Shown: positions 28,521 to 47,985 of the stretch, piece by piece
Layout: each line of letters opens with the position of its first letter
Position numbering within the stretch: position 1 is the stretch's first letter
Source of the DNA: Pseudomonas fluorescens
GTDB taxonomy: Bacteria > Pseudomonadota > Gammaproteobacteria > Pseudomonadales > Pseudomonadaceae
Direction of reading: 5' to 3'
NCBI RefSeq assembly: GCF_900215245.1
Contig: NZ_LT907842.1
Span: 5,642,001 to 5,706,000, forward strand
Length of the DNA: 64,000 bases
The notes under the pieces: model-generated
Database searches by the model: none
Told to the model about the DNA's origin: nothing
Seen by the model: the letters and a program-made list of their open reading frames with translations, nothing else
Made by a program: the position numbers and the translations under genes

Positions 28521-28532
28521 ACGGGGAAGCAA

Positions 28533-29082: not shown

Positions 29083-29210
29083 GCGCCCCTGGGGGGCTCA
29101 TGCCTGAAATGAGCGAGCCAGACGGTTGATCATGCATCATGATCGGCTACTCGATGTGAATGAGGCGTGGGTGTGGCTGGCCGAGGCTCACAAGCTTGCT
29201 CGTCGGCTTA

Positions 29211-30134
29211 TCACTTGAATTTGTCTAAACCCTCTAACCGGGCACTTATCTGCTGACAATTTTTCCGAAGGGAATCAACAAAATGTTCCACGGTAGACGA
29301 TTCGGGTCGGTGCAACGGCCGTACGACACTGACACAGTAAGAAATTGAATGTGAAAAGCGACGAATCTGCAAACCTCGCCCGACATAGTCGAGGGCGGTG
29401 ATCGGATTCACAATGGCAACGCCCACTCCCAGGTTAACGGTCGCACACACGGCGCTCGCGCTATGTGTCTCTACCGCGAGCCGTCTTTCGATGCCTGACT
29501 GGTGGAAGATAGCGTCCGTTTTTCTTCTGTAGGGATCATCCGCCGCAAGGTAAACAAAATTTTGCCCCTCGAAGTCTTGTGGTGTGAGGACTGTTTTCGC
29601 ATTTAATTCGTGATAAGACGGTAAAACACACACCACGTCGAGGTTCAAGAGTGTTTCGATGTAGGTGCCCGGGGGTGTTTCCAGGGTTTCAGTCAACCCC
29701 AGGTGATAACGCTGAGCAGTCAGCGACTCCTCGAGGGCGGGCGATTCCTGGGGCGTGATATTGATGCTGACGCCAGGAAATTCACTGCAGAAATCCTGGC
29801 AGACCTGTGGCAACAAGGCATTCGAGAAAGCCGGTATGCACGTCAACGAAATTTGCCCTTGCCGAAAATGCCTGATGGCCTCGACGGCATTTTTCACTCG
29901 GGCTAACCCCACATAGCTGCGTTGAACTTCATCGAACAACATCAGCCCATGCTCAGTCGGAATCAACTTTGCACCCGCGCGCTTGAACAACGTCAACTGA
30001 GTCAGCGTTTCGAACCGGCTGAGCTCTCGGCTGATGGTGGGCTGCGAGGTATGCAGAAGTTCAGCGGCACCCGTCGCGCTGCCGGTCGTCATTACCGCCC
30101 AAAATACTTCCACATGGCGAAAACTGAAATTCAT
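29211..30134 (-). CDS. LysR-family regulator of the adjacent biosynthetic operon (OccR/NocR-like)
   Basis: A 307-residue regulator. The start at 30134 (MNFSFRHVEVFWAVM) follows GGAG at a good distance; the frame is open to 30194 but the extra residues are not family-like. The winged helix-turn-helix (TGSATGAAELLHTSQPTISR) and the LFKRAGAKLIPTEHGLMLF segment are closest to OccR/NocR-type regulators that sense octopine, nopaline or related arginine and ornithine derivatives. The effector-binding domain follows (QISLTCIPAFSNALLPQV). It is divergent from the nine-gene operon starting at 30327, which contains an argininosuccinate-synthase-like gene, so an arginine-like effector is plausible. Confidence 0.85.
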   Translation of the reverse strand: MNFSFRHVEVFWAVMTTGSATGAAELLHTSQPTISRELSRFETLTQLTLFKRAGAKLIPTEHGLMLFDEVQRSYVGLARVKNAVEAIRHFRQGQISLTCIPAFSNALLPQVCQDFCSEFPGVSINITPQESPALEESLTAQRYHLGLTETLETPPGTYIETLLNLDVVCVLPSYHELNAKTVLTPQDFEGQNFVYLAADDPYRRKTDAIFHQSGIERRLAVETHSASAVCATVNLGVGVAIVNPITALDYVGRGLQIRRFSHSISYCVSVVRPLHRPESSTVEHFVDSLRKNCQQISARLEGLDKFK

Positions 30135-30326
30135 GAGCCAACTCCGCGATGAATCGAACACGCCACACCATATCAGAAATGAATAGACAGCCACTAAATT
30201 GATATTTTTACTTTGTTTTTTTGCTGAGCATACTTTCCAGGTACTCGAAACTTTAATGATCAGGATGATCGCTACATGAGTGCGCTTATCGCGTCCTGAA
30301 TAAAATAACCCTACAGCGAGCGGGCG
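30135..30326. promoter_or_regulatory. Divergent, A+T-rich control region of the biosynthetic operon
   Basis: The 192 bases between the LysR regulator and the first operon gene include a strongly A+T-rich stretch (about 30187-30230, with ATTGATATTTTTA). This contrasts with the G+C-rich flanks. LysR regulators of this type bind T-N11-A sites here; several candidates exist and I cannot single one out. The first gene has a GAGCGGGCG stretch as a modest ribosome binding site. Confidence 0.5.
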
Positions 30327-31310
30327 ATGAAATACCGGCGATTTGGACGACTGGAATGGAATGTTTCTGAAGTGGGATATGGAATGTGGGGGGTCGCGGG
30401 AGGTGAAGGGGGTTGGACCGGCTCATCCGATGTCAGCGGCATGGCGGCGTTGGAGCATTCGATTCAACTAGGCTGCAACTTTTTCGATACGGCGTGGATT
30501 TATGGTCGTGGCCACAGCGAAAAAATGCTGGGGGAAGCATTACGAAACCACCCAGGCAAAACCTTATATGTAGCCACTAAAGTCCCCCCCAAGAACCGCG
30601 AATGGCCCTCGCACCGGGGTGACCGTTTAGACCAGATTTTCCCGCCCGACCATATTGAAGAATATGTCGAGAAAAGTTTGCAGTCACTCGGCTTGGCGTC
30701 CCTGGATTTACTGCAATTTCATGTCTGGGAAGATGCGTGGGCTCATGATGAATCCTGGATACGCGTGGTGGATGACCTCAAACGGCAACGCCTGATTCGC
30801 GGCATCGGCATCAGTGTCAATCGCTGGGAACCCACCAACGTACTCGACACGCTGAAAACAGGAATGATCGACGCGGTACAGGTGATTTATAACGTCTTTG
30901 ATCAAGCGCCTGACGATGAATTACTTCCGTTATGCCGCGAACTGGACATTGCCGTCATCGCCAGGGTGCCGTTCGACGAAGGCTCTCTGACGGGGAATTT
31001 AACGATCGACTCAACGTGGCCTGCCGGTGATTGGAGAAGCAGCTATTTCGTGCCAGAAAACCTGGCAGCGACGGTGGCGCGGGTCGAGTCTTTGAGACGG
31101 GCTCTTCCCGCCGATACTCAGCTATCGGACGTCGCGCTGAGGTTCATTCTGTCCAACGATAACGTCGCAACGACTATTCCTGGCATGCGCTCTATTCCAC
31201 ATGTCGAAGCGAACATGGCGTGTTCTGACAAGGGCAAGATAGAGCCGGCGTTAATGACGCTACTACGACAGCACCGATGGGACCGTGAACCGACCGCGTG
31301 GTCGCAGTAA
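30327..31310 (+). CDS. Aldo/keto reductase, first gene of the biosynthetic operon
   Basis: A 327-residue NADPH-dependent oxidoreductase. The catalytic set is visible: Asp and Tyr in FDTAWIYG, Lys in VATKVPP and His in LLQFHVWEDAW. The C-terminal cofactor segment includes TTIPGMRSIPHVEANMA. It belongs to the YajO/YghZ-like branch. As the first gene of an operon whose NRPS ends in a thioester reductase, it may reduce the released aldehyde or another carbonyl intermediate, which is inference. G+C is lower than in the flanking core genes. Confidence 0.85.
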   Translation: MKYRRFGRLEWNVSEVGYGMWGVAGGEGGWTGSSDVSGMAALEHSIQLGCNFFDTAWIYGRGHSEKMLGEALRNHPGKTLYVATKVPPKNREWPSHRGDRLDQIFPPDHIEEYVEKSLQSLGLASLDLLQFHVWEDAWAHDESWIRVVDDLKRQRLIRGIGISVNRWEPTNVLDTLKTGMIDAVQVIYNVFDQAPDDELLPLCRELDIAVIARVPFDEGSLTGNLTIDSTWPAGDWRSSYFVPENLAATVARVESLRRALPADTQLSDVALRFILSNDNVATTIPGMRSIPHVEANMACSDKGKIEPALMTLLRQHRWDREPTAWSQ

Positions 31311-31361
31311 CAGGCGTGAAGCGAAACTGTTAATAACAACAACTCTCTAAAGGACTACCGC

Positions 31362-32525
31362 GTGAAATTCTCGGACTTGAAAGGTAAGAAAGTTGGCATC
31401 TGTGCCTCCGGTGGCTTGGTCAGCTTATTCATCGCGCAGCGTTTGAAAGAGGAGCACGTTGACGTCGAACAGTTCATTGTCGACATTGGTCAACCGGGTG
31501 ATGAAGCACACGAGTTTTGTGCAGACAACATCGAATTGATGCAGGCCGTTAATGTCATTGATTTGAAGGAAGACATTGCGCTCAGCTTTCTCCACGCTGT
31601 ACGTGCCCAGGCGCAGTACGACGGTGGCTACTGGAACACGACTGGCATCGCCAGAGCCGTAACTGTTAAAGGCCTGGTTGATGCATTGCGCGAACGTCAG
31701 TGCAGTGTATTGGCCCACGGCGCCGTTCATGGCGGCAACGATGAATTCCGCTTCAATTACTACCTGAAAATGTTTGCGCCAGAGATCACGCCCTTTTCTC
31801 CCTGGGAAGACCCAACCACGTCAGATCGTTTTCGAACCCGCGTAGACATGGGCGACTTTGTTGCCGACGCCGACGAAACCATGATGCGTACGAAAGCCCA
31901 TCACTCCGTTGATGCCAACGTCGGCGGTGTGTCGCATGAGAACCGCGAAGTTGAGGTGCTCTCAAATTCACCCGATATGATCAGCCCGATCATGGGCGTC
32001 AAGGTCATGGATGCGCCCGACGTGCCAGAGACTTGCAGTATCACCTTTAAGCAAGGTATTCCCGTTGAGATTAATGGTCAGTCAGTGAGTTACTACCAGG
32101 CACTCGCTGAAGCCAACAGGATCGCAGGCCGCAATGGGGTGGTCTTGAAGAACGTATTGGAAAACCGAATGAACGGCACTAAAGGCCGTGGCTTATACGA
32201 ATCTCCGGGGCTGGACATGCTCGGCATCGCAGCGAAACATCTACTGCAGGCAACGGTCGACAAGGACTCATGGGAGGTCCTGCGGTTTTTGTCACCCTTT
32301 ATCGCACGTCAATCGTATGCAGGTCGTTTGTATGACCCCGCCACGCAGGCCGCATTGGCCAACGTAGCCACATTGACTGAACAGGCGAATGGCACCGTCG
32401 ATGTGATCGCTTATAAAGGCAACTACATGGTTGACCGCGTACGCGAATACTCCAAGTCGCGCTTTACCGCACAGCAATTCCGTTTCGCTCATGGCGGGCA
32501 AAAGTGGATCACTGAATCCGTTTAA
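31362..32525 (+). CDS. Argininosuccinate synthase-like enzyme with altered nucleotide motif
   Basis: A 387-residue protein related along its whole length to class II (E. coli type) ArgG: GQPGDEAHEF, YWNTTGIARAVT, HGGNDEFRFNYY (the GNDxxRF substrate motif), HHSVDANVGGVSHE, SPIMGVKVMD, TFKQGIPVEING, ENRMNGTKGRGLYESPG. The N-terminal PP-loop reads ASGGLVSL (16-21 SGGLVS) where true synthases have SGGLDTS, so the conserved Asp is lost. It is also about 60 residues shorter than E. coli ArgG. ArgG joins citrulline to aspartate using ATP. Here a paralogue in a biosynthetic operon probably activates a different ureido or carboxyl group. No argininosuccinate lyase partner is encoded nearby. Confidence 0.8.
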   Translation: MKFSDLKGKKVGICASGGLVSLFIAQRLKEEHVDVEQFIVDIGQPGDEAHEFCADNIELMQAVNVIDLKEDIALSFLHAVRAQAQYDGGYWNTTGIARAVTVKGLVDALRERQCSVLAHGAVHGGNDEFRFNYYLKMFAPEITPFSPWEDPTTSDRFRTRVDMGDFVADADETMMRTKAHHSVDANVGGVSHENREVEVLSNSPDMISPIMGVKVMDAPDVPETCSITFKQGIPVEINGQSVSYYQALAEANRIAGRNGVVLKNVLENRMNGTKGRGLYESPGLDMLGIAAKHLLQATVDKDSWEVLRFLSPFIARQSYAGRLYDPATQAALANVATLTEQANGTVDVIAYKGNYMVDRVREYSKSRFTAQQFRFAHGGQKWITESV

Positions 32526-32583
32526 GCCATGAGGGGCTGACTGTCCTGGCATCCTGCACATATTGCTGAAATAAAGGTTAACT

Positions 32584-33342
32584 ATGCAGCACAGACTAAT
32601 TGTTTTGTGGGCCCCTCCACGCTCGCTTTCCACCGCATTTGTACGTGTGATCGCCGCGCGTGGTGACTTCACTATCTTGCATGAGCCTCTGTGCGATCTG
32701 TCGGCGTGTGGTATATACAGCCATCCGCAGACGGATCATTCAACTCAGACGTTGAACAATTCAACCGAGCTTTTCAATTATGTACAGGCATTGCGCGCGC
32801 AACGTGCTGTGTTCATCAAGGACACCTGTGAGTTCGACTATCGTCATCGACTGACGGGAACATCTTATATGCGCGAAGCGCAACATGTGTTCATGTTGCG
32901 CAATCCGGAAAAGGTAATTAACTCACACTACTATATTAACCCAGACCTTACCTGCAGCGAGGTGGGCTACCAACACTTGGCTGAACTCTATGATGCCGTG
33001 AAGGCGGAGTCGATACATTCGCCCTTGTTCGTTGATGCGGACGACATGATCCTGAGCCCTGAGTGTGCAATTTCGAACTTTTGCAGGGATGCTAACTTGC
33101 AGCATCTGCCCGCTGCTCTCCAGTGGCAGAGCGGACACTTGGATGTGTGGGAGCGAACCCAGCATTGGCATTTGGATGCAGCAAACAGCACAGGCATTGC
33201 GCCGATCAAAAAGCAATACAGCACGCGCGTCGACAACCACCCGGTACTGCATGAATTCTACTTAGAAAATATGCCGCATTATGAGTATTTGAAGCGTGAA
33301 AGGGAGGCTGTACTAAACAAGCACCTTGGCGACCTAGGGTAA
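32584..33342 (+). CDS. Sulfotransferase-family protein
   Basis: A 252-residue protein. The N-terminal VLWAPPRSLSTAFVRVIAARG has the P-loop-like 5'-phosphosulfate-binding motif of PAPS sulfotransferases, and HVFMLRNPEKVINSHYYI has the 3'-phosphate-binding R-N-P...S form. The next gene, 8 bases downstream, is an APS kinase that makes PAPS, which strongly supports real sulfo-transfer. The acceptor is unknown but is most likely the operon's own product. The C-terminal third has no features I recognise. Confidence 0.78.
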   Translation: MQHRLIVLWAPPRSLSTAFVRVIAARGDFTILHEPLCDLSACGIYSHPQTDHSTQTLNNSTELFNYVQALRAQRAVFIKDTCEFDYRHRLTGTSYMREAQHVFMLRNPEKVINSHYYINPDLTCSEVGYQHLAELYDAVKAESIHSPLFVDADDMILSPECAISNFCRDANLQHLPAALQWQSGHLDVWERTQHWHLDAANSTGIAPIKKQYSTRVDNHPVLHEFYLENMPHYEYLKREREAVLNKHLGDLG

Positions 33343-33350
33343 CGAACGAA

Positions 33351-34013
33351 ATGCCTATATCTGATGTGGCCTGTGACCTGACCTGGCAATTATTTCCCGT
33401 GGAACAATCTATGCGCAGCGCTAGATTGAAACAAAAACCTTGTGTGCTTTGGTTTACCGGCTTGAGTGGGGCTGGAAAGAGCACCGTGGCCGGTCTGGTA
33501 GAATCGCTGTTATTCCAGAAAGGTTACCTGACTTACGTGTTGGACGGGGATAACGTACGTCATGGGCTATGCCGTGACCTGGATTTCACCCACCAAGGGC
33601 GAAGTGAAAATATTCGACGGGTGAGTGAAGTCAGCAAGTTGCTTGCTGACGCGGGCTTAATCGTATTGACCGCATTTATTTCTCCTTTTCGACATGATCG
33701 CGCCCAGGCAAGAGCGCTGATTGGCGACAGTGATTACGTGGAAATCTTTATCAATGCCTCTTTTGATGTGTGCGAGGCACGCGATCCAAAAGGGCTCTAT
33801 AAAAAGGCCAGGGAGAAACAGGTCGCCGAGTTTACCGGCATCGATTCTCCATATGAACCACCGGTACATCCCGAACTCATCATCAATACGGACACTCAAA
33901 CCGCAATTGCTTGCGCTGAAAAGATTGTCAACTATTTGTACAGCACGGGTCGGTTGTTATTGGAATCAACGGATGACTGCTTATCCCGCGAGCGGGTCAG
34001 TGCACGCAGTTAA
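33351..34013 (+). CDS. cysC: Adenylylsulfate (APS) kinase
   Basis: A 220-residue kinase that phosphorylates adenylyl sulfate to PAPS. The Walker A GLSGAGKST is at 37-45, followed by LDGDNVRHGLCRDLDF, the RSENIRRVSEV segment, ISPFRHDRAQAR and the DPKGLYKKAR/PYEPPVHPEL tail. All are standard for CysC. The N-terminal WQLFPVEQ is close to the usual WH-x-x-x-V start. Stand-alone CysC in a biosynthetic operon next to a sulfotransferase points to a dedicated PAPS supply. The ribosome binding site is weak (AACGAA), which suggests coupling to the upstream gene. Confidence 0.93.
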   Translation: MPISDVACDLTWQLFPVEQSMRSARLKQKPCVLWFTGLSGAGKSTVAGLVESLLFQKGYLTYVLDGDNVRHGLCRDLDFTHQGRSENIRRVSEVSKLLADAGLIVLTAFISPFRHDRAQARALIGDSDYVEIFINASFDVCEARDPKGLYKKAREKQVAEFTGIDSPYEPPVHPELIINTDTQTAIACAEKIVNYLYSTGRLLLESTDDCLSRERVSARS

Positions 34014-34036
34014 GCTCATCAATTGGAGGAAGCAAG

Positions 34037-35359
34037 ATGGACTATTTTAATTTTGTCGACGGTCATTTACATGTGGAGCACCTTGATGTTCGTCAGATAG
34101 TCGAACAGCATGGAAGCCCCGTGTATGTCTATTCAGCACACACCTTGAAAAATCACTACACCGTGCTGAAAGATGCGTTTTCTGCCCTCTCGCCGTTGAT
34201 TTGTTTCTCAGTTAAAAGCTGCAGTAATCTCAGCATCCTTAAGCTCTTGGTCGATCAAGGATCAGGGCTGGATGTGGTCAGTGGCGGTGAGCTCCACCGG
34301 GCACTGATGGCGGGAGTGACTGCGGACAAGATTGTGTTTGCCGGGGTCGGCAAGTCGCGTGAAGAAATTCGCTACGCGGTTGAAGCTGGCGTTTTCCTTT
34401 TTAATGTGGAGTCTGAAGGCGAGCTGCTGCGTCTGGATGAGGTCGCCAGGACGGCCGGTAAGCGTATAAAAGTGGCCATTCGTATCAATCCGGATGTGGC
34501 GGATGCTGGCACCCCTGAGAAAACCTCAACAGGCGGCCGCCAGACAAAATTTGGCATACCGATGGAACGCGCCTACGAACTGTTCGAGCCGAAGCGTTAC
34601 TCAAGCGTCGATGTCGTTGGGATCCATATTCACCTTGGATCGCCGATTCCATCAGCTCAGACCTATTTGTCTGCCATCGATAAGATCGAGGACATGATCA
34701 ACCGACTTAAGGCGACTGATTGCGCGATCGAATTTGTCAACATTGGTGGAGGTTTTCCAGCGCAGTACGGGACCGAAAGCAATCCCGTTGGCTCATTAAC
34801 TGAAACGGGAGCACTTATTTGTCAGCGTCTGCAAGGGCTGAAACAGCGCGGTATCCGCTTCATCATTGAACCGGGTCGTTCGATCAGCGCAAATGCCGGT
34901 ATTTTGCTGACCACCGTCGAATACATTAAACAAGGCTGGGATCGAAAGATCGCTATTGTCGATGCGGGCATGAACGTACTGCTGCGGCCCACCCTGTATG
35001 GTGCCAACCATGTTATTTGGCCAACCCATTTTGAGAATTTTTCTGGCCATTGGACGGCGTTAACCCACAGCGCTCAGCAGTCCGACGTCACTCACTTGGA
35101 GGAGACCGATATTGTTGGGCCTATTTGTGAGACCGGCGATCACTTTGCATTAGGTCGAGCATTACCGGCGTTTGACAATGGCAGTGTATTGGCGATTTTT
35201 TCATGTGGTGCGTATGGCATGAGTATGGCCAGCCAATACAACTCCCGTGGGCGCCCACCCGAAGTCCTGGTTGAGGGAATCAATGCCAAGTTAATACGGA
35301 CTCGTGAAACTCACGAAGATTTAGTGGCTCACGAATTATGTGGCTTGGACAACGCTTGA
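34037..35359 (+). CDS. Diaminopimelate decarboxylase-like PLP enzyme
   Basis: A 440-residue fold-type III PLP enzyme of the LysA/ornithine decarboxylase group, with GGAGG upstream. PLP Lys60 lies in CFSVKSCSNLSILK. Other family marks are SGGELHRAL, HIHLGSPI, NIGGGFPAQYG, EPGRSISANAG and the substrate-contact loop GPICETGDHFALGR. The length is normal. A second, operon-borne LysA-like decarboxylase recalls TabA of the tabtoxin cluster. The substrate here may be a diamino or modified amino acid precursor. It need not be meso-diaminopimelate, and no dap genes accompany it. Confidence 0.82.
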   Translation: MDYFNFVDGHLHVEHLDVRQIVEQHGSPVYVYSAHTLKNHYTVLKDAFSALSPLICFSVKSCSNLSILKLLVDQGSGLDVVSGGELHRALMAGVTADKIVFAGVGKSREEIRYAVEAGVFLFNVESEGELLRLDEVARTAGKRIKVAIRINPDVADAGTPEKTSTGGRQTKFGIPMERAYELFEPKRYSSVDVVGIHIHLGSPIPSAQTYLSAIDKIEDMINRLKATDCAIEFVNIGGGFPAQYGTESNPVGSLTETGALICQRLQGLKQRGIRFIIEPGRSISANAGILLTTVEYIKQGWDRKIAIVDAGMNVLLRPTLYGANHVIWPTHFENFSGHWTALTHSAQQSDVTHLEETDIVGPICETGDHFALGRALPAFDNGSVLAIFSCGAYGMSMASQYNSRGRPPEVLVEGINAKLIRTRETHEDLVAHELCGLDNA

Positions 35360-35404
35360 CGCTGACGCACTGCGGCGGCTCTCTAAATAGATTGGAATGT
35401 GACC

Positions 35405-36676
35405 ATGACTCACAACATTGCAGTAATCGTCGATGCGTATTCCACTGGCGCGAAACTGGCCGCTAAGTTTCATGCAGAGGGCGTAGCGGTCCTGCACGTC
35501 CAAAGTGCCTCGCCCATCATTGATTTTTATATCAACGATTTCAGGCCCGACGACTTTATCGCCAACGTGGTATTTAACGGTTTGGCGGAATCTCTAGTCG
35601 AAATCAATCGATGGTTGAACGGCATCAAGCCTATTTGTGTTTTGGCCGGCGCCGAAACGGGCATTGAACTTGCGGATCTGCTCGCCGGCGAACTCGGCGT
35701 GGAGGGAAACTCCACAGAGACGTCGCGTGTTCGGCGAGATAAATACGCAATGGCCTGCGCGCTTAAAGAGGCGGGGTTAGCCACACCTTATTTTCTGCGC
35801 ACAGACAATTTACACACGTTGACTGAATGGGCCTCAGGCCACGGCTGGCCAATTGTGCTGAAGCCCTTAGCCAGTGCAGGTAATGACAGTGTATTTTTCT
35901 GCAATGACCGAGCCGAACTGGAAAGTGCTTTTCACTCCATCTATAACAAAGCCAACCGCTTTGGTGGGCACAATAACCATGTGCTGGCACAGACCCTTTT
36001 GAAGGGGACGCAGTACGTCATTAATAGTGTTTCAATCGACGCGCAGCATTATATTTCTGATATGTGGATCGATCGCCGCAAAGTGATTGCCGGCGCCTCA
36101 AATATTTATGATTGCGAAGAACTTCTGCCCTATGAGGGCGAGGTGCAGGCGGCTTTAGTCAGCTATATGAAAAAAGCGCTTGATGCGCTGGGTGTGCACA
36201 ATGGGCCCGCTCACTCCGAAATCATGATGACGGCTGAAGGGCCGGTGTTGATTGAAACCGGCGCCCGCCTGCAGGGCGCAATGCTTGAAGAAGCGGTTAT
36301 TGAGGCGCTTGGCGAGAGCCAAATCACGCTGACGATCGAACGTTATTGCCACCCTCACCTGTTCAAACGGCGTTTGGGCCAGCAGTACGTTTTATCAAAA
36401 CATGTCCTATGCGTAGCGATGATCTCCGACCAGGAAGGCGTCGTTGTTGATACAACCGGCTTCGAGAGGATTCGCTCGCTTTCTTCCTATGCCTGCCATT
36501 TCCACCTGCCCGAAAAGGGCGACACGATTACACGCACCATCGACTTATTTTCGATTCCGGGCGTTGTTTACCTGAGCCATGAAGAACTCGCCGTTTTACA
36601 GGCTGATTACGCAACGATCCGTCGGCTTGAGAGTGCACACCAAGTGTTTTCTCTGAATGAGAACGTACCTGTATAA
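35405..36676 (+). CDS. ATP-grasp ligase (first of two)
   Basis: A protein of about 423 residues; ATG 35399 and ATG 35405 (MTM doublet; MTHNIAVIVDAYSTG) are both possible. ATP-grasp features are visible: the preceding-domain loop VFNGLAESLV, the G-loop region GWPIVLKPLASAGNDSV, and the metal-binding strand HSEIMMTAEGPVLIETGARLQG. It resembles BacD/L-amino-acid ligase-type enzymes, which form peptide or amide bonds through acyl-phosphates. With a second ATP-grasp gene in the operon and no NRPS condensation domain, it is a likely peptide-bond former. Substrates unknown. Confidence 0.84.
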   Translation: MTHNIAVIVDAYSTGAKLAAKFHAEGVAVLHVQSASPIIDFYINDFRPDDFIANVVFNGLAESLVEINRWLNGIKPICVLAGAETGIELADLLAGELGVEGNSTETSRVRRDKYAMACALKEAGLATPYFLRTDNLHTLTEWASGHGWPIVLKPLASAGNDSVFFCNDRAELESAFHSIYNKANRFGGHNNHVLAQTLLKGTQYVINSVSIDAQHYISDMWIDRRKVIAGASNIYDCEELLPYEGEVQAALVSYMKKALDALGVHNGPAHSEIMMTAEGPVLIETGARLQGAMLEEAVIEALGESQITLTIERYCHPHLFKRRLGQQYVLSKHVLCVAMISDQEGVVVDTTGFERIRSLSSYACHFHLPEKGDTITRTIDLFSIPGVVYLSHEELAVLQADYATIRRLESAHQVFSLNENVPV

Positions 36677-36815
36677 AACCGGGTTCACTCGGCCCTAGCT
36701 GAGTTGAGCGAGTACCACAACCTTTTCTCGCTTGCCGGTTGACCACTTACAGCATCTCTGACGAACGCACATAGCGCTTAGATTGTTTATACATTTCTAT
36801 TTACAGGAGTATTAG

Positions 36816-39800
36816 ATGATTATTGGTCAACGCGAGCATTCACCCCTGAGTGGCTGTCAGCCAGACAGGCTAAGTGTACTGGCGATGGTGTATAAGGCTG
36901 CACACAGGCAGGGAAGCAAAACAGCAGTCACCTGCGGTGATCAATTCCTTACTTATAATGAACTCATAGCCGCTGCACGCGCCAACGCAAAGCGTTTGCA
37001 CGCCTGCGGTGTGAGCAACAAAGATATTGTGCTTTGTGCGTTACCGACCGGCGTCGAGTTACCCATTGCGTGGTTGTCTGTGATGATGACCAACGCCATT
37101 ATTATTCCGGTGGATGCCAAATGGCCGGAAAATAGAATACACGCAGTCGTTGAGGCCAGCCAGGCAGCATGGGTTATCACGAATGGAGAACAGCCGGCCT
37201 TAAGAAGTGCCGGCCTTAACCTGTTTGAAATAAGACTCGACGGCACGACTGACTTAAATGCTGAAACACACGCCCAGTGTTTCTCAGACGACCTGCTCTA
37301 TGGTTTCTTTACATCGGGATCAACCGGCCGCCCGAAATGCGCCTTGAATTATCATGCCGGGCTTGTGAATCGCTTTACCTATATGACCAAGCGATTTGGT
37401 GGCGGGCACACTGTCTATCAGAACAGCGCGCCGTTGTTCGACTCGTCAATTTGGCAAATGCTGTGGCCGCTTACCAACGGCGGCGTGGCGGTATTGCCTA
37501 AACAGCGCGATCACTGGAATGTCGAGTCGCTGGTAGACGAGATTGAACGTCATCACATCACGATGACTGATTTCGTACCCACCCTCTTCAAATTATTAAC
37601 TCGTGCGCTGGAGAATGGGACCCTTGCCGCAAAACGCTTGGACAGCTTGCGGCATGTCTTGATCGGCGGAGAAGAGATTGACGCTGCATCCGTGCACACA
37701 TTTAGGCGCTTTTTCCCACGTTGTACTGTCATCAATACCTATGGTCACACCGAGGCATCCATCGGGATGGTATTTCATGAGGTGTGCGATCACGACAATG
37801 ACAAGATTCCACTCGGTCAGCCTATCGATAATACGTATGTCAAAATTGTCGACGACCAGTTGAGGCCCGTAACGGATGGCGTCTTTGGGGAAATCGTTGT
37901 TGCCGGTATTTGCGTCGGAGGTGGCTACCTGAATGCCCCGGAACTGAGCGCACGATCCTTTATACGTAATCCCTTTTCAGACCTGCCTGGCGACAAGGTT
38001 TACTTGACTGGGGACATTGGCCGTATACGGCCCGATGGTTGCCTTGAATATGGCGGCAGAGCTGACGACCAAGTCAAGGTGCGCGGGGTGCGTATCGAGC
38101 TCAACGAAATAGTGTCGGCAATCAAGGCCGGGTTCGACGCCGTAAACGACGCACTGGCATTTGTCTTGCCCACTCAGCAGGGCGATGCGAGTTTGGCGCT
38201 GGTCTACGTGGCGCCACACGCATTGGATTTACAGCACGTACGACGCGAACTGGCGCGGCATCTGCCAGCGACACACATGCCACAGTTAGTGCATCACTTG
38301 AAGACTCTGCCTATTTCACCGAATGGGAAGGTAGACCGTAAACGTATAATCAGTGACTTGAAAAACGATCATTCTGAAACGCTGCAACCCTGTAGCAACA
38401 GTACCCTGCTGGAAAAAATAATTGCGTGTTATCGCACCGTACTGCTGAACAATCAGATAGGGAGTGAAGACGACTTTTTCGAATGCGGTGGAGATTCGCT
38501 AGCAGCCGCTAATCTATCACTGGCATTGTGCAAGCATCTTGGAACCGATGTTCCGATGACCGCCATTTATCAGTTCGCAACGCCGTCGCAACTGGCCGAC
38601 TTTATGAGCGGCTGTGAGCAAACGGTCGAAGCCACGCCAAGCGATAGCTTGGCGAGGGTCGCATTCAATAATCACCAGCCGACAGCGACAATGAGCTCGA
38701 CGCTCTTATTGACTGGCTCGAGTGGTTTTGTAGGCATTCATATTCTTGCGCACTTATTAGCCACCACCCACCTGCACGTGACCGTCCTGCTACGTGGCAG
38801 CAATAGAGAAAGCGCTCTATGCCGCTTGGAGAAAGTGTTCCTGAGCGCGTTCCCTGCACGCGTATTACAACGCCAACGTATTACTGTCGTGCTAGGTGAT
38901 TTGGCCTTGCCATGTTGGGGCTTGGATCCAGACGAATGGCAACATCAATGTGCTTCTATTGATGAGGTGATTCATTGTGGCGCGGCGGTCAATTTCCTGT
39001 TCCATGCCTCTCAATTGTTCTCAGCTAATGTGGGTGGAACCCAGGAACTCATCCGATTCTGTAATGAAGGTAAGGCCAAGAGGTTGCACCACATTTCATC
39101 GTTGGCAGCCAAGCTGCCAGCCGTGTCTGGCCGCGATCCGGAAGGCATTGTCTCGGCCATCGAGGCAGCAGCATTGGGTGTTACCGGGTACGGGTATACC
39201 AAATACCTGGCAGACAACCTCGTCGTTGCCGCACAGCAGCAAGGGCTGCATGCCAGGATTTATCGTGTCGATGATGTGCTGCCGTCAATGAGTACCGGCT
39301 ACTCAAATGGCCAGTCCCTTTTTCATTTATTGCTTAAGCAATGCGTTCAGATGGGCGTGGCACCTGCGGGCTGCGGCAGCCTTGGCCTATTGTCAGCGGA
39401 TGCGTTGGCCGAGTGGTTGTGCACGTTTGTGGGTAGCCAGGAACGGTTCCAGAGCGGAGCCCCCCTGATTGATGTTGTTGGCCAACACTATGTCGAATTT
39501 GACGACATTGTGCGCTATACCGCGCAGAGAACGGGTCGTGATATAGCCTGCGCCTCCTATACAGAATTTTTGTCGATGCTAACGCACGCGGGTCAAAGCG
39601 AAGCGACGCTGATACAGCAAATATTACCGCCCGTGAATGCTGACAAAGTGGCATTCACCAAAGCGCCCCGTTGCCTGCCAGCAGATATCCCTCAAGCTCA
39701 TCTACTTACAGCGGACCTGAATAGTTTTGATGCTTTTATTCACCTGTTCAAAGCCGAACTGGATGAGCGTTCAAACAACCAATGTTGTGTGCTGAGCTAA
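36816..39800 (+). CDS. Stand-alone NRPS module: adenylation, thiolation, thioester reductase
   Basis: A 994-residue protein with ACAGGAG before the ATG. Adenylation domain about 20-510 (FFTSGSTGRPK, NTYGHTEASIG, YLTGDIGR, NGKVDRK). Carrier domain about 530-595 with the phosphopantetheine Ser at 561 (GGDSL). NAD(P)H reductase domain from about 628 (LTGSSGFVG; catalytic Y-x-x-x-K in GYGYTKYLAD near 790). There is no condensation domain. A hand alignment of the specificity pocket gives D-S-W-D-L-G-T-I-G, which fits no code I know; the acidic residue at the 278 position could favour a basic amino acid. The expected output is an amino-aldehyde, or an alcohol after further reduction. A 139-base gap upstream may hold a second promoter. 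Confidence 0.88.
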   Translation: MIIGQREHSPLSGCQPDRLSVLAMVYKAAHRQGSKTAVTCGDQFLTYNELIAAARANAKRLHACGVSNKDIVLCALPTGVELPIAWLSVMMTNAIIIPVDAKWPENRIHAVVEASQAAWVITNGEQPALRSAGLNLFEIRLDGTTDLNAETHAQCFSDDLLYGFFTSGSTGRPKCALNYHAGLVNRFTYMTKRFGGGHTVYQNSAPLFDSSIWQMLWPLTNGGVAVLPKQRDHWNVESLVDEIERHHITMTDFVPTLFKLLTRALENGTLAAKRLDSLRHVLIGGEEIDAASVHTFRRFFPRCTVINTYGHTEASIGMVFHEVCDHDNDKIPLGQPIDNTYVKIVDDQLRPVTDGVFGEIVVAGICVGGGYLNAPELSARSFIRNPFSDLPGDKVYLTGDIGRIRPDGCLEYGGRADDQVKVRGVRIELNEIVSAIKAGFDAVNDALAFVLPTQQGDASLALVYVAPHALDLQHVRRELARHLPATHMPQLVHHLKTLPISPNGKVDRKRIISDLKNDHSETLQPCSNSTLLEKIIACYRTVLLNNQIGSEDDFFECGGDSLAAANLSLALCKHLGTDVPMTAIYQFATPSQLADFMSGCEQTVEATPSDSLARVAFNNHQPTATMSSTLLLTGSSGFVGIHILAHLLATTHLHVTVLLRGSNRESALCRLEKVFLSAFPARVLQRQRITVVLGDLALPCWGLDPDEWQHQCASIDEVIHCGAAVNFLFHASQLFSANVGGTQELIRFCNEGKAKRLHHISSLAAKLPAVSGRDPEGIVSAIEAAALGVTGYGYTKYLADNLVVAAQQQGLHARIYRVDDVLPSMSTGYSNGQSLFHLLLKQCVQMGVAPAGCGSLGLLSADALAEWLCTFVGSQERFQSGAPLIDVVGQHYVEFDDIVRYTAQRTGRDIACASYTEFLSMLTHAGQSEATLIQQILPPVNADKVAFTKAPRCLPADIPQAHLLTADLNSFDAFIHLFKAELDERSNNQCCVLS

Positions 39801-39869
39801 CGCGCGAAGCGTGGGCTTTAACATTCAAACGCGCTTTAACTATTTATCTGTATTTTCCAGGAGAGACCT

Positions 39870-41096
39870 GTGATGCGTCGCTTAATTATGATCGGTGGTT
39901 GGACAGAAATTTATGTAAAAGCCAAGGCGTGTGGCTTCCATCTGACCGTCGTACAGCAAAAAGAAGATATTACCTTCGAAGACTTTCTTATCGCGGATCA
40001 AATTATTTCCTCTCCCATGGGCGAAAAAGTAGTCGTCGACCTGGTTGAGACGCTGCACCGGCGGGAAGCTTATCACGCGGTCGTTTCCTTTCAAGAGTTT
40101 GGCCTATTGAACGCAGCGCTGATTCAGGAACGGCTGGGCATTTTGGGCAACCCTATTGGCCCGGTTTTATTAACGCGCGACAAAGGGCATATGCGCGCGC
40201 ACATGAAGGCAAACGGCATACCATCGATTCCATTCGCAACCGTTAACAGCCCTGAAGAGGTGATCGCTTTTGCACAGCAGTGCGGATGGCCCATCATCAT
40301 CAAGCCGGTGAACGGTGCGGGGAGTCTACAAGTGCACAAACTGTTTTCAGAAGATGAAGTCGTGCCAGCCTATAACGCGATCAAACAGGATTTTTTGACC
40401 ACCGATTTAATTAAATACGACTTTCCTGACATCGGGATCATCGCGGAAAAGTTTATCGAAGGGCCAGAAGTCAGCGTCGAGGCTATTTCCTGGGACGGTC
40501 AGCACACGATACTAGGCGTCACCGACAAAATCACAACCGGCTATCCTGGTTTTGTAGAGACCGGGCATAGTATGCCCTCGGCACTTGCCCCTGAAAAAAT
40601 TGATGCCATTAAACGGCTGACTATCTCTTTCCTGACCTCCATTGGTCACCTGTATGGTCCCTCTCATTCGGAAATCATCTTTTCGGAAACGGGGCCCGTC
40701 ATCGTCGAGTCTCATACACGCACGGGCGGCGACCGCATTTTTGAAATGACCGAGTTAGCGTGTGGCGTCGACATGTTTACCGCTACGCTTCAAGGCTTGT
40801 CTGGGGCATTCCCAGACATTCAAATGACTAAAACCAACGGGGCCGCTATTCGGTATCTGTCGTTGCCGACTGGCCGGGTGACGAGCATTTCAGGGCTGGA
40901 TACCGCTCACCAATCGCCTGGCGTCGTCAGGTGCGATATCACGGTTAAGGCGGGAGACATCTGCAAACGCCCTCAGAACTCAGATGAAAGGGCTGGGTAC
41001 ATTCTTGCGAACGGGGACAGTGGACCGCAGGCCATTGAAAATGTGATGCGAGCCTTAGCCAAGGTCACGGTTGAAGTGGAGCGCCTTAATGCTTAG
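39870..41096 (+). CDS. ATP-grasp ligase (second of two)
   Basis: A 408-residue ATP-grasp enzyme with CCAGGAG upstream; GTG 39870 or ATG 39873 is the start. It has the G-loop region GWPIIIKPVNGAGSLQVH, the IIAEKFIEGPEVSVE strand and the metal-binding HSEIIFSETGPVIVESHTRTGG. It belongs to the biotin-carboxylase-like, BacD-type branch, like the gene at 35405, but the two are not close copies. It probably forms an amide or peptide bond in the same product. The first codons of the MFS gene overlap its last eight bases, which implies translational coupling. Confidence 0.85.
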   Translation: MMRRLIMIGGWTEIYVKAKACGFHLTVVQQKEDITFEDFLIADQIISSPMGEKVVVDLVETLHRREAYHAVVSFQEFGLLNAALIQERLGILGNPIGPVLLTRDKGHMRAHMKANGIPSIPFATVNSPEEVIAFAQQCGWPIIIKPVNGAGSLQVHKLFSEDEVVPAYNAIKQDFLTTDLIKYDFPDIGIIAEKFIEGPEVSVEAISWDGQHTILGVTDKITTGYPGFVETGHSMPSALAPEKIDAIKRLTISFLTSIGHLYGPSHSEIIFSETGPVIVESHTRTGGDRIFEMTELACGVDMFTATLQGLSGAFPDIQMTKTNGAAIRYLSLPTGRVTSISGLDTAHQSPGVVRCDITVKAGDICKRPQNSDERAGYILANGDSGPQAIENVMRALAKVTVEVERLNA

Positions 41097-42339
41097 CTTG
41101 CTCTCGCTCATTGCCGGCCGCGAATTCAGGAAATACATAGCCGCGTCGATATTAACCGCCATTGGCAGCGGCATGTATTTCGTTGCCATTTCTTGGTACA
41201 TCTACACAACCTCTGGCTCCGCAATGGCAGTCGGTTGGGTGTTGATCGTTTCTTCATTGCCGGGTTTGTTGTTTTCACCGTGGATTGGGGTGCTGGTTGA
41301 CCGGTGGAACGTTCGATCCATTTGCATAGTGGCCGATTTTGCGCGTGCGCTGATTTTGCTGTTCGTTGCGGTTTCGATGTACTACGGGGTATTGGGGCTC
41401 ACAGCAGTTTACCTGGCGACCTTTCTGATCGCGCTGTGTGAGCACTTTTTCCAACCGGCCGTGGGGGCGTTGATACGCGATATTGTCCCGAAGGAGCGCC
41501 TGCTTGAGGCCAATGTTTCGAGCAGTATGAGCATGCAAATCGGTTTGCTCATTGGAGCAAGTATTGGCGGCTTTTTAGTTGCACTTTTCGGCACGCAATA
41601 TGTGGTAATCATTAACATCATTTCCTTTTCCATCTCTGGTGTCCTTACCCTATGGATAAAACACACGCCCGCAATCAAACATGCAGTCGAAAGGTTAGTC
41701 ACGCCCGGCGCCATGAGAGAGTTTTATGACGCGATTCGCTATGCGATTGGCACACGTTTTGTAATTGGGCTGGCGCTCCAGCAGATGTTTATTTATGTAA
41801 CGCTTTCTGTGTGCAATACACTTCTGCCAATTTTCGCTGATAGAGAGCTTTCAGCGGGTGCCCAAGGGTTTGGGTTAATTGATGCCGTGTGGGGAATGGG
41901 TGCCATCTGTGGCGGTTTTTCACTGACCTATCTTGTGAAAAAAATACACGCTGAGTGGTTTGGCGTGTTCGGCCTAGGTGCGATTTCCTTTTTGCTGTTT
42001 GTTTTCTTGACGGCAAACAGTGTCCCTCAAGCGGCGGCTGCTTATTTCCTGTTAGGCGCATTTGTCGTCATGATTCGGGTCAATTCAGACACCCTTATTG
42101 CTACAGGCGTAGAGCCCTCGCAGTTTGGAAAAGTCAAAGCAGCCATTTCGATGTTTATCTCTTATGTGAGCCTGATTGCTTACGCCGGTGTGGGTTACCT
42201 GGGAGATATAATGTCTGTTCGTTGGATTTATTTCATATTGAGCGTAGTTATTTTATGCTCCGCGCTGGGAATGACATGGAAAAACATATTAAAAGACAGA
42301 CACTTGTTATTGATGGATAAAATCAACAACGCTAATTAA
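41089..42339 (+). CDS. MFS exporter of the biosynthetic operon
   Basis: A 416-residue transporter with about 12 hydrophobic segments, starting at ATG 41089 (GGAG seven bases upstream) inside the end of the ATP-grasp gene. It begins MLSLLSLIAGREFRKYIAAS and has the MFS loop PWIGVLVDRWNVRSICIVAD. It is of the drug/enterobactin-exporter (MFS_3) type. As the last gene of the operon it is the probable exporter of, and self-resistance factor for, the product. It could also be an importer, but the family and position favour efflux. Confidence 0.85.
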   Translation: MLSLLSLIAGREFRKYIAASILTAIGSGMYFVAISWYIYTTSGSAMAVGWVLIVSSLPGLLFSPWIGVLVDRWNVRSICIVADFARALILLFVAVSMYYGVLGLTAVYLATFLIALCEHFFQPAVGALIRDIVPKERLLEANVSSSMSMQIGLLIGASIGGFLVALFGTQYVVIINIISFSISGVLTLWIKHTPAIKHAVERLVTPGAMREFYDAIRYAIGTRFVIGLALQQMFIYVTLSVCNTLLPIFADRELSAGAQGFGLIDAVWGMGAICGGFSLTYLVKKIHAEWFGVFGLGAISFLLFVFLTANSVPQAAAAYFLLGAFVVMIRVNSDTLIATGVEPSQFGKVKAAISMFISYVSLIAYAGVGYLGDIMSVRWIYFILSVVILCSALGMTWKNILKDRHLLLMDKINNAN

Positions 42340-42570
42340 ACCGTCTAAAAAACTAAACCTTTAGTCTCTGGACTGGCCGCTATCAAATCGGATAATTGCA
42401 CTGCGTTAATTTGATTCCGCTGCAAACTCATAAGGACGGTCTGAAGTACCCACCGATTTTTGATGCCCTCACGACTTGAGGCTCAAAAAATCATAAATCG
42501 GCGAAAATCAGACCTTTCTTTTCCTTATTCCACGGTTCTTCCCTTTGGTTGCGGTAGGGATGACAGTTAC

Positions 42571-42717
42571 TGGGCGCTTGATCACGCGAAACGGATGCTC
42601 AATCTTCGCCCGCACCTGCGCTTTCGCGTATTCGATCTTGCGTAGCATGCGCCTGATCAGACTATTTTTTGCGTGCTTTTTATAGCGGCTTGACCGGGGC
42701 GGCAATCGACCAGGTCA
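42571..42717 (-). pseudogene. IS5-family transposase fragment
   Basis: On the minus strand about 48 residues match the C-terminal region of IS5-type DDE transposases: YKKHAKNSLIRRMLRKIEYA and AQVRAKIEHPFRVIKR, which includes the catalytic Glu region (KIEHPFRVIKR). The usual continuation QFGY-VK is lost, because the frame runs off into unrelated residues after RVIKRP. Nothing remains of the N-terminal part or of a full element, so this is debris at the edge of the island. A nearby imperfect inverted repeat (CCGATTTTTGAT near 42450 and ATCATAAATCGG near 42490) could be a residual end. Confidence 0.7.
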
Positions 42718-42749
42718 TCTTGCGATTCTGATGCTCTGGACTGTTGGCG

Positions 42750-42908
42750 CATCGCCTCGATCAGGCTCATTACGCGCTCGCTCATGTCGCCATACAGCGC
42801 GTAATTCGAGGAGAACGGGACAATGCCGTGCTGCTTGAGCTTGCGCTTGATCTGGAAATACGGCTCACCCATCTTGATAAAGGGCTTGGCATCGTAGCTA
42901 CCATAGCG
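42750..42908 (-). pseudogene. umuC/rulB-like DNA polymerase V fragment
   Basis: The minus strand codes RYGSYDAKPFIKMGEPYFQI followed by KRKLKQHGIVPFSSNYALYG and DMSERVMSLIEAM, the stretch just after the first active-site motif of Y-family polymerase UmuC. Both the N-terminal start (nucleotide-binding DCNNFYAS) and everything after VMSLIEAM are missing. At its upstream edge (about 42908) it joins an integrase fragment on the other strand. In Pseudomonas, rulB (umuC) is a known landing site for XerC-type integrase elements, so the join is probably historical, not a sequencing artefact. Confidence 0.75.
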
Positions 42909-43532
42909 CGTGAGTGGGGCCTTACTGACAAAGCCAATCCTTGCTTTGGCGTTCGACGCAACAAGGAAAAGCCACGGGACTATTATGCCGGTGAAACTGT
43001 ATGGAACGCGGTATACGCGGAGGCGGCACAGGAGCTCAGGGACGCGATGGATCTGGCCTACCTAACCGGCCAACGTCCCGCGGATGTACTCAGAATTGCT
43101 GCCACCGACGTGAACAACGGTTTCTTACAGATTGGCCAGGGCAAGACCGAAAAACGCCTACGTCTTCGCTTGGAGGATGCAGGCGTACAGTCCGGGCTGA
43201 GCGTCTTTATTGAAGACCTGCAGGAACGTAGAGCAATCAATGGTATTCGGACCTCAACCTTGATCACCAATGCGTCTGGACTTCGAATGAGCCAGCAGAT
43301 GTTGCGCAATCGGTGGGACGACGCACGGGAGAAGGCAGCGATCAAAGCTGCGGCTGATGGCGACCCGGCATTGGCCACGAGCATTCGACAATTTCAGTTC
43401 AAGGACATCCGGCCGAAAGCAGCTAGCGAGATCGAACTGACGCACGCTAGCCGCCTATTAGGTCACTCCACAGAAGAAATGACCAAGAAGGTATATCGGC
43501 GAGTCGGCGAAATTGTGAGGCCGACGAAATGA
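42909..43532 (+). pseudogene. Tyrosine recombinase/phage integrase, 5' truncated
   Basis: About 207 residues of a site-specific integrase begin abruptly at REWGLTDKANPCFGVRRNKE and continue with RDAMDLAYLTGQRPADVLRI (the Arg of the catalytic R-K-H-x-R-Y set), DIRPKAASEI, SRLLGHSTEEMTKKVYRR (last His and nucleophile Tyr). The N-terminal core-binding domain is absent. The open frame continues back to 42744, but only across the antisense of the umuC fragment, so the apparent 262-residue protein is chimeric. The recombinase is probably inactive. It marks the right end of the biosynthetic cluster. Confidence 0.8.
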
Positions 43533-43752
43533 CCCATTGCTACCTATACCAAGGCAGAAAACGACCCAAAGCAATCACTCAGCTACTGGCTCCCACGATG
43601 TCGTCGCGACCGGTCAGGAACCGCAGAAAGTTTTCAGCATCAGAACGAATCAGGAACATCACAGTGAAAGTGCCTAGCGTCAACAAGCAGCAAGGGGGAG
43701 ACTCTATATCCTCGAACACGATTTTCACAAATGTCCTCCCGTCAAGGGTTAA
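43533..43752. other. Intergenic stretch with no supported gene
   Basis: This 220-base stretch follows the integrase fragment. One open frame (43529-43777, plus) is hydrophilic and lacks a family; it overlaps the end of the GGDEF gene and has no convincing ribosome binding site, so I do not call it. I see no terminator. Confidence 0.4.
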
Positions 43753-47854: not shown

Positions 47855-47871
47855 ACCAAATTGCAGCCAAT

Positions 47872-47911: not shown

Positions 47912-47985
47912 TGGAGGCCGAGGTCGGAATCGAACCGGCGTAGGCGGATTTGCAATCCGCTGCATAACCATTTTGCTACTCGGCC
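47912..47985 (-). tRNA. tRNA-Cys (anticodon GCA)
   Basis: A 74-base cloverleaf on the minus strand. The acceptor stem is GGCCGAG/CTCGGCC, the discriminator U is followed by an encoded CCA, the anticodon arm is CGGAT-TGCAA-ATCCG with GCA, and the T loop is TTCGATT. The T stem (GCCGG/CCGAC) has one C-A mismatch at position 50-64. In Pseudomonas the usual tRNA-Cys sits in a Gly-Cys-Leu tRNA group near pgsA; this one is alone with its own terminator, so it may be an extra copy. Its 3' end faces the low-G+C island, the usual side for integration. Confidence 0.93.

What the first reader, a model, noticed from the sequence alone, without database searches (positions are those of the whole stretch)
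29211..42339. Unrecognised biosynthetic cluster: sulfo-modified, ATP-grasp-built peptide or amino-aldehyde
One divergent LysR gene and nine same-strand genes combine an A-T-reductase NRPS without a condensation domain, two ATP-grasp ligases, an ArgG paralogue, a LysA-like decarboxylase, a sulfotransferase with its own APS kinase, an aldo/keto reductase and an MFS exporter. Read from family knowledge, ATP-grasps form the amide bonds, the NRPS reductively releases an aldehyde (or alcohol), and PAPS-dependent sulfation decorates the product. Tabtoxin (LysA-like TabA, ATP-grasp, MFS) and leupeptin-type clusters (A-T-R release) share parts of this logic, but I know no described cluster with this whole set. 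A small antimetabolite or protease-inhibitor-like peptide is the hypothesis.
Basis: partly seen in the sequence, partly recalled or inferred. Interest (0 to 1): 0.88.

Follow-up and report, generated by a model that had tools for sequence, protein, structure and literature searches.

The report
Mobile reduce-and-sulfate amino-acid gene cluster
A rare gene cluster that moves between soil bacteria appears to turn a basic amino acid into a reduced, sulfated small molecule, using an altered arginine-making enzyme whose reaction is not known; the product itself has not been seen.

Summary
In detail: one divergent LysR gene and nine same-strand genes lie at 29211-42339 with the families named. The core recurs, in one order, in four further loci (two Pseudomonas, two Duganella), and there is one truncated Pseudomonas copy. 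It is a mobile cassette: 13.5 kb shared at 97% with almost no shared flank. Comparison changes the reading. The conserved core is AKR, ArgG-like, sulfotransferase, APS kinase, LysA-like and A-T-R. The ATP-grasps are accessory (none in the GM48 locus) and the exporter is swapped (MFS, EamA, LysE). The A-T-R belongs to a family with one substrate code, DSWDLGTI.K; two members are fused to an APS kinase. The ArgG-like protein is a discrete clade keeping every citrulline contact but losing the aspartate-contact Thr (23/23) and the PP-loop Asp (22/22). Best reading: a basic, lysine/arginine-type amino acid is reduced by A-T-R and AKR to an amino alcohol and sulfated, with a repurposed ArgG making an unusual guanidine or related group, optionally capped by ATP-grasps and exported. 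Product, substrate and the sulfate's role (kept or leaving group) are inferred. The peptide-aldehyde idea is weaker than first thought.

The parts
29211..30194 (-). LysR-type regulator, divergent; likely true start near 30134
   Evidence: divergent LysR next to the AKR in L008-L012; start by comparison
30167..30206 (.). conserved intergenic block (ATATCAGAAATGAAT ... AAATTGATAT), probable LysR operator/promoter
   Evidence: near-invariant in 5 loci while the flanking intergenic DNA diverges; ATATCAGNNATGAAT occurs once in the window, 30170-30184; function inferred
30327..31310 (+). aldo/keto reductase; catalytic Asp/Tyr, Lys and His present; 55-61% identical in Tistrella, Embleya and G459
   Evidence: tetrad recalled
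31362..32525 (+). ArgG-like ligase of a separate clade; citrulline contacts kept, T131V, PP-loop D23V
32584..33342 (+). PAPS-type sulfotransferase (Sulfotransfer_5) with both PAPS-binding motifs
   Evidence: no match in the PDB sequences at E up to 1; motifs recalled
33351..34013 (+). APS kinase (CysC), dedicated copy; two other strong APS-kinase matches in the genome
34037..35359 (+). LysA-like PLP decarboxylase; catalytic and distal-end residues kept, YAVKAN->FSVKSC and GSQ->GSP changes in 5/5
   Evidence: 44% identical to the genome's own LysA
35399..36676 (+). ATP-grasp amide ligase (PRK07206/DdaF-like), accessory
   Evidence: present in L009, L010, L011 and Tistrella, cut in L008, absent in the GM48 locus
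36816..39800 (+). A-T-R protein without condensation domain; code DSWDLGTI(G)K
39870..41096 (+). ATP-grasp amide ligase with LAL_C2 domain, accessory (only window and TNT3 among the six loci)
41071..42339 (+). MFS exporter; EamA in Duganella CF517 and LysE in GM48 instead
42744..43532 (+). phage-type integrase beside the cassette (island gene, not biosynthetic)
47912..47985 (-). tRNA-Cys at the start of the conserved right flank

Best explanation
The cassette is a horizontally moving biosynthetic cluster for a small, exported, amino-acid-derived metabolite. Proposed route: (1) the LysA-like enzyme decarboxylates diaminopimelate or an analogue, supplying a lysine-type building block; (2) the A-T-R protein loads a basic amino acid (lysine-type first choice, arginine-type second) and reduces it to the amino aldehyde; (3) the aldo/keto reductase reduces that to the amino alcohol; (4) CysC makes PAPS and the sulfotransferase sulfates the alcohol; (5) the ArgG-like enzyme activates the ureido group of citrulline or homocitrulline and, no longer binding aspartate in the usual way, joins it to another amine, probably of the pathway intermediate, giving an unusual substituted guanidine; (6) where present, the ATP-grasps cap the molecule with amino acids to make a di- or tripeptide; (7) an exporter that differs by lineage removes it. 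LysR controls it. Shown: gene content, conservation, order, mobility, motif state, ArgG-site changes, near-invariant A-domain code, an A-T-R/APS kinase fusion. Inferred: every substrate, the order of steps, the regulation and the product.
For: AKR, ArgG-like, SulT, CysC, LysA-like and A-T-R occur in the same order in window, TNT3, Duganella CF517, Duganella 1411 and GM48 (5 of 6 loci; the sixth, dw_612, is cut). A distant genome, G459, keeps SulT (35%), AKR (61%), A-T-R (33%) and ArgG-like (28%) side by side. A-T-R and AKR adjoin in Tistrella and Embleya, where 25 kb around them show no ArgG-like or SulT match. A-domain code identical or nearly so in 8 of 8 loci and in a second Embleya A-T-R; exact at all nine alignable positions in 99 of the 120 homologues listed, of 2400 found (profile-selected, so biased). 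None of 8 distinct A domains read from other NRPS loci of the same genome has Trp239 plus Asp278. Asp278, Gly301 and Thr322 also occur in the DGEDHGTVVK code found there; that this, and DAEDIGTVVK, mean lysine is recalled. Two of the 120 listed, P0293 (Amycolatopsis aidingensis) and P0303, carry an APS kinase fused behind A-T-R (P0293). ArgG clade: T131V in 23/23 versus Thr in 97/97 of the next homologues; Asp23 lost in 22/22 with letters (V 21, T 1) versus Asp in 97/97; citrulline contacts unchanged. The genome has a separate LysA and ArgG. Longest-contig lengths coincide between SulT-clade and ArgG-clade lists 7 times, 0 of 94 for the other SulT rows.
Against: No product or activity is known. 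Code-to-substrate assignment is extrapolated: Trp239 is not typical of lysine or arginine codes (recalled), and position 331 fell in a gap. The changed PP-loop could mean that the ArgG-like enzyme does not use ATP normally or is inactive. LysA-like and CysC were not seen in G459, whose contig ends there, nor in the Tistrella locus, so step 1 is not essential to the module. The second Embleya A-T-R has the exact code but no AKR or SulT match within 30 kb, and Tistrella and the first Embleya locus were found by searching with the AKR, so AKR coupling is partly a matter of how they were found. The AKR could act on something other than the A-T-R product. No structure could be predicted (queue full at every try).
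Confidence: 0.42

Rival explanations
1. Sulfate as leaving group: the amino alcohol is sulfated only to be displaced intramolecularly by an amine or guanidine nitrogen, giving an aziridine, cyclic amine or cyclic guanidine warhead; no sulfate remains in the product.
For: A-T-R plus AKR would give exactly the alcohol that such activation needs; an A-T-R/APS kinase fusion ties PAPS supply to reductive release; precedent: ficellomycin sulfation/intramolecular cyclisation (Yue 2020, seen only as cited in PMC8713700, passages).
Against: No extra cyclase gene; nothing in the sequences distinguishes retained from displaced sulfate.
Confidence: 0.25
2. Peptide aldehyde: ATP-grasps build a peptide, the A-T-R releases an aldehyde protease inhibitor, sulfate decorates it.
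For: C-less A-T-R systems for small peptide aldehydes exist (livipeptin, PMC10548850, passages); two ATP-grasps are present; one A-T-R with the same code has no AKR nearby.
Against: Both ATP-grasps are absent in the GM48 locus and one in both Duganella loci; a conserved AKR accompanies the A-T-R in 8 of 9 loci.
Confidence: 0.15
3. The ArgG-like protein no longer forms a C-N bond but dehydrates or otherwise activates the ureido group (cyanamide or carbodiimide type product), as ArgG-like nitrile synthetases dehydrate amides.
For: Loss of the aspartate contact and of the PP-loop Asp in the clade; PDB 9leh, called nitrile synthetase, is a weak sequence relative (E 5e-4); a nitrile synthetase is described as argininosuccinate synthetase-like in a paper title (Zeng 2025, seen only in the reference list of PMC13060819).
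Against: Similarity to 9leh is far weaker than to true ArgG; chemistry on a ureido group is unproven.
Confidence: 0.12
4. The ArgG-like protein is a non-catalytic or regulatory remnant and the pathway is a plain sulfated amino alcohol pathway.
For: PP-loop Asp lost in 22/22.
Against: It is 67-78% identical to the window protein in Duganella and GM48, more than SulT (52-57%) or A-T-R (46-54%), and the citrulline contacts are invariant, which points to selected catalysis.
Confidence: 0.08

Closest known systems
Argininosuccinate synthase (ArgG)
   Same: HUP and C-terminal domains, all citrulline contacts
   Different: below the argG equivalog cut-off, T131V and D23V, no ArgH in the cluster, separate clade with a gap from 64% to 47% identity
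Small peptide aldehyde systems with C-less A-T-R (livipeptin; leupeptin-type)
   Same: A-T-R without condensation domain
   Different: no L/F-transferase domain among the ten proteins; has AKR, sulfotransferase, APS kinase, ArgG-like, LysA-like; ATP-grasps dispensable
Myxochelin MxcG (lysine, two-step reductive release to an alcohol; PMC8400222, passages)
   Same: best NCBIfam hit of the A-T-R; lysine activation and reduction to an alcohol is the proposed logic
   Different: no C domain; 381 bits against a 2300-bit cut-off; 13 other places of this genome score higher; the second reduction would need a separate AKR
Ficellomycin-type sulfation/cyclisation
   Same: sulfotransferase-mediated activation of an alcohol is one possible role
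   Different: gene-by-gene comparison not made; similarity is of logic only, as cited in PMC8713700
Tabtoxin cluster
   Same: LysA-like protein, ATP-grasp and MFS gene (recalled)
   Different: no asparagine-synthetase-type lactam-forming protein among the ten proteins; A-T-R, ArgG-like, sulfotransferase are extra
Streptomyces NRPS clusters with Sulfotransfer_5
   Same: relatives of the sulfotransferase at 33-36% identity; two of the three also have CysC and CysD
   Different: multimodular NRPS clusters; no ArgG or AKR among the annotated genes (gene tables incomplete)

Membership tests
Argininosuccinate synthase | score above NCBIfam TIGR00032 cut-off | tested here: not met
   226.0 of 268.2 bits
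Argininosuccinate synthase | citrulline-binding residues (Y99, N135, R139, S192, T201, E203, E280 of E. coli; site list recalled) | tested here: met
   23/23 clade members (T201 is Ser in clade and in 97/97 others)
Argininosuccinate synthase | aspartate/ATP contact Thr131 | tested here: not met
   Val 23/23 against Thr 97/97
Argininosuccinate synthase | PP-loop SGGxD | tested here: not met
   Asp absent in 22/22 with letters, present in 97/97 others
Argininosuccinate synthase | argininosuccinate formed from citrulline and aspartate | not testable with these tools
   needs enzyme assay
Diaminopimelate decarboxylase | TIGR01048 cut-off | tested here: met
   424 of 298 bits; own LysA 525 bits
Diaminopimelate decarboxylase | canonical PLP-site environment (YAVKAN, HxGSQ) | tested here: not met
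   FSVKSC and GSP in 5/5 aligned, YAVKAN and GSQ in the own LysA
PAPS-dependent sulfotransferase | 5'- and 3'-phosphate binding motifs | tested here: met
   PRSLST and R.P..VINSH in the window and L008-L012; P12, R13, S14, S16, T17, R106 and S114 invariant in 30 sequences; motifs recalled
C-less reductive-release NRPS (A-T-R) | A, T and R domains with catalytic residues, no C domain | tested here: met
Peptide-aldehyde protease inhibitor cluster | peptide-bond forming partner conserved with the A-T-R | tested here: not met
   no ATP-grasp match in the GM48 locus
Tabtoxin-type cluster | AsnB-type beta-lactam synthetase | tested here: not met
   no such Pfam domain in the ten proteins; feature recalled
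Ficellomycin-type aziridine pathway | sulfate displaced to close an aziridine | not testable with these tools
   chemistry

The most novel reading that the evidence does not exclude
The ArgG-like clade is a new C-N bond-forming (or dehydrating) enzyme class that activates a ureido group without aspartate, and together with the A-T-R/AKR/PAPS module it defines a family of mobile clusters making reduced, sulfated or sulfate-cyclised guanidino metabolites, a chemistry that none of my ten literature searches showed for a bacterial cluster.
Probability: 0.35. Interest if true: 0.8.

Novelty: new variant of a known kind. Interest (0 to 1): 0.62.

Why it matters
If right, it gives a compact, testable pathway in cultivable Pseudomonas and Duganella in which a primary-metabolism enzyme (ArgG) has been recut for another nucleophile, and a reduce-then-sulfate module (A-T-R, AKR, PAPS) whose A-T-R family reaches from proteobacteria to actinobacteria. 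The A-domain code, the ArgG T131V/D23V signature and the A-T-R/APS-kinase fusion are handles for genome mining. The movement of a 13.5 kb cassette among Pseudomonas, with relatives in Duganella, suggests a metabolite of ecological value, but its activity is unknown.

Tried and rejected
Rejected: ArgG-like and LysA-like as housekeeping copies (separate ArgG at 29% and LysA at 44% identity exist). Rejected: ATP-grasps as core. No near relative of the cassette among plasmids: megablast found one 64-base match, and ArgG-like tblastn matched 83 plasmid records, all under 60% identity (30 listed). Looked for a second att copy of the tRNA-Cys end inside the variable region: none convincing. The promoter scan found fewer sites than shuffles (2 against a mean of 12.1) and gave nothing. 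Sulfotransferase relatives that are not cluster relatives: G234 has an APS kinase nearby but none of the other cluster genes; G520, G609 and G363 show only the sulfotransferase; in G411 and G430 a distant relative (26 and 30%) lies within 5 kb of a canonical ArgG with SGGLDTS and HGATGKGND, with no other cluster gene in 20 kb. The plasmid search with the AKR gave 12 records: I opened the two at 55% or more; the ten at 44-45% were not examined. Two further proteins found with the A-T-R profile in 369 genomes of the class (G804, G932) have other codes and no other cluster gene. The nearest named A-T-R model (MxcG) is not specific. The Tistrella cluster has a desaturase-like gene weakly like an arginine hydroxylase (GntB, 46 of 380 bits); kept only as a hint towards an arginine-type substrate. 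Literature: ten searches listed no paper that I recognised as describing this gene set, and none holds the DSWDLGT code; only five papers were opened, in passages, one search listed 15 of 46, and the library lacks most subscription papers. In the motif scan some patterns were too strict (for example the AKR motif in both Duganella loci, one R-domain motif in Duganella 1411, the AKR His motif in GM48, the CysC serine pattern everywhere), so empty rows there are not evidence of absence. I first counted 12 control A domains; the recount gives 8 distinct ones.
Full report
What is there. The protein at 36816-39800 has AMP-binding, carrier and thioester-reductase domains and no condensation domain. 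In the window, catalytic motifs are present in AKR, R domain, carrier, APS kinase P-loop, sulfotransferase and LysA-like protein (residue roles recalled). The genome is one contig of 6.51 Mb. It is a Pseudomonas: genome G246, same genus, carries on a 112105-base contig the locus that the named collection holds as Pseudomonas sp. GM48 on a contig of the same length.

How rare. With the ArgG-like protein at E 1e-60, 2 of 298 genomes of the genus match, the window's own genome included. A scan of one genome per species for the sulfotransferase gave five loci: Pseudomonas dw_612, TNT3 and GM48, Duganella CF517 and 1411; this scan finds close relatives only. In 398 genomes of the phylum the sulfotransferase profile matched 8 at E 1e-20. 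Besides the window only G459 has AKR, A-T-R and ArgG-like beside it; G234 has an APS kinase, G411 and G430 a canonical ArgG in the neighbourhood, G520, G609 and G363 nothing of the set. In the 5.8-billion-protein set the sulfotransferase clade is 26 clusters at 47% identity or more, some of them fragments, then a gap to 39% (120 of 192 listed), and the ArgG-like clade is 23 clusters at 64% or more, then a gap to 47% (120 of 1175 listed).

Conserved unit. tblastn of all ten proteins shows LysR-AKR-ArgG-SulT-CysC-LysA-(...)-A-T-R in the same order in TNT3 (95-98% for the ten genes), both Duganella loci and GM48. ATP-grasp-1 is in TNT3 and both Duganella loci, cut in dw_612, absent from the GM48 locus; ATP-grasp-2 and the MFS gene are only in TNT3. 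In their place Duganella CF517 has an EamA transporter and GM48 a LysE transporter. The gene between ATP-grasp-1 and A-T-R of Duganella 1411 was not typed. dw_612 is decayed: its AKR match is split and the match to the cassette ends within ATP-grasp-1. For LysR and the six core genes the Duganella proteins are closer to the window than those of Pseudomonas GM48 (7 of 7; for example ArgG 77-78 against 67%, A-T-R 54 against 46%), which does not follow species relationships and suggests transfer of the block as a unit.

Mobility. The cassette has mostly 49-54% G+C, 45% at its right end, against 57-62% to the left. TNT3 shares window 29175-42643 at 96.9% and of the flanks only one 118-base match; dw_612 shares 29091-35906 at 97.9%. 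In relative G004 the flanks 25052-27157 and 47841-49962 lie about 3.8 kb apart instead of about 20.7 kb; short matches within that stretch (28522-28652, then 43132-43572 in and just behind the integrase gene) place the missing part at about 28.7-43.1 kb, which is the cassette. tRNA-Cys 47912-47985 stands at the start of the right flank and an integrase gene lies at 42744-43532. No second tRNA end copy was found, so the insertion mechanism is not shown.

A-T-R family. Of the 120 best homologues 99 have the identical nine letters and 119 keep Asp at 235 and 278 with Trp at 239. The list was chosen by a profile made from six of these proteins, so this shows coherence, not an unbiased frequency. 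As a control, 8 distinct A domains of other NRPS loci of the same genome (12 rows, overlapping loci) give other codes, none with Trp239 plus Asp278. An acidic residue at 278 suggests a basic side chain (recalled). A-T-R and AKR are neighbours in Tistrella pTM3 (38% and 61%), with an ATP-grasp-1 relative (45%), an EamA-like protein (22 bits, below the Pfam cut-off of 28) and a desaturase-like protein, and in Embleya (32% and 56%); both were found with the AKR as query. A second Embleya A-T-R, code DSWDLGTIGK, has a LysA-type decarboxylase next to it (27% to the window's; 141 bits to lysA, below cut-off) and no AKR or SulT match in the 30 kb. P0293 and P0303 are A-T-R proteins with an APS kinase at the C-terminus (P0293), an independent link of reductive release to sulfation; 2 of 120 listed.

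ArgG-like clade. Thr131, which contacts aspartate and ATP, is Val in 23 of 23 and in G459, Thr in 97 of 97. The PP-loop Asp23 is Val in 21, Thr in 1, not covered in 1, and Asp in 97 of 97. The substrate half of the site is intact and the co-substrate half is altered, together with the nucleotide loop. No ArgH is among the ten genes. The reading that another nucleophile is used, or none, is inference.

LysA-like protein. It passes the lysA equivalog cut-off and keeps Lys60, the EPGR arginine, RP.LY, CETGD and GAY, but the five aligned proteins have FSVKSCSN and GSP where the genome's own LysA (44% identical) has YAVKANSN and GSQ, and they have an insert near residue 330. It may act on diaminopimelate or an analogue.

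Co-occurrence beyond fetched loci. This is indirect evidence that they lie on the same contigs.

Mechanism. See the best explanation. The chain basic amino acid, aldehyde, alcohol, sulfate uses A-T-R, AKR, CysC and SulT and is the part I hold most likely; where the ArgG-like and LysA-like steps enter is open. Whether sulfate stays or leaves cannot be told from sequence. Papers seen in passages only: PMC8713700, PMC13060819, PMC9113183, PMC10548850, PMC8400222. The last states that MxcG loads lysine and reduces the released aldehyde further to the alcohol, a precedent for the proposed logic.

Limits. MIBiG and antiSMASH were not available; ten literature searches, judged by their listings, showed no description of this gene set, in a library that lacks most subscription papers. 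Structure prediction was never accepted because the queue was full.

Noticed in passing
P0293 (Amycolatopsis aidingensis) and P0303: A-T-R proteins with a fused C-terminal APS kinase, an architecture linking reductive release to PAPS supply.
   Followed up: partly
L056 13401-18142 (Embleya sp. NBC_00888): A second A-T-R with the same code beside a LysA-type PLP decarboxylase, within a region that also holds aminotransferase- and Eis-like genes.
   Followed up: partly
L029 8333-17122 (Tistrella mobilis pTM3): Related small cluster: A-T-R, AKR, desaturase-like protein weakly similar to an arginine hydroxylase, EamA-like protein, ATP-grasp-1 relative.
   Followed up: partly
L074 10473-13314 and L075 9600-14658 (G411, G430): A distant sulfotransferase relative near a canonical ArgG in two genomes of one family; chance neighbourhood or an older link between the two functions is open.
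   Followed up: partly
L008 (Pseudomonas sp. dw_612) 6632-13331: Decayed copy of the cassette: the AKR match is split and the shared DNA ends inside ATP-grasp-1.
   Followed up: no
window 30167-30206: Conserved block with inverted ATATCA/TGATAT arms between LysR and AKR in five loci, a likely regulator site.
   Followed up: partly
own genome 2307943-2310837 (L065): Another protein in the genome that matches the A-T-R part of the MxcG model, with a different code (DSIFLGLVLK); possibly a pvf-type enzyme (recalled).
   Followed up: no
L027, L028, L031 (Streptomyces plasmids): NRPS clusters with a relative of this sulfotransferase; two of the three also have CysC, CysD and a penicillin acylase gene.
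   Followed up: no
window 27277-27831: 184-aa open frame left of the cassette with no Pfam match; window 27279-27857 is 86% identical in relative G017.
   Followed up: no
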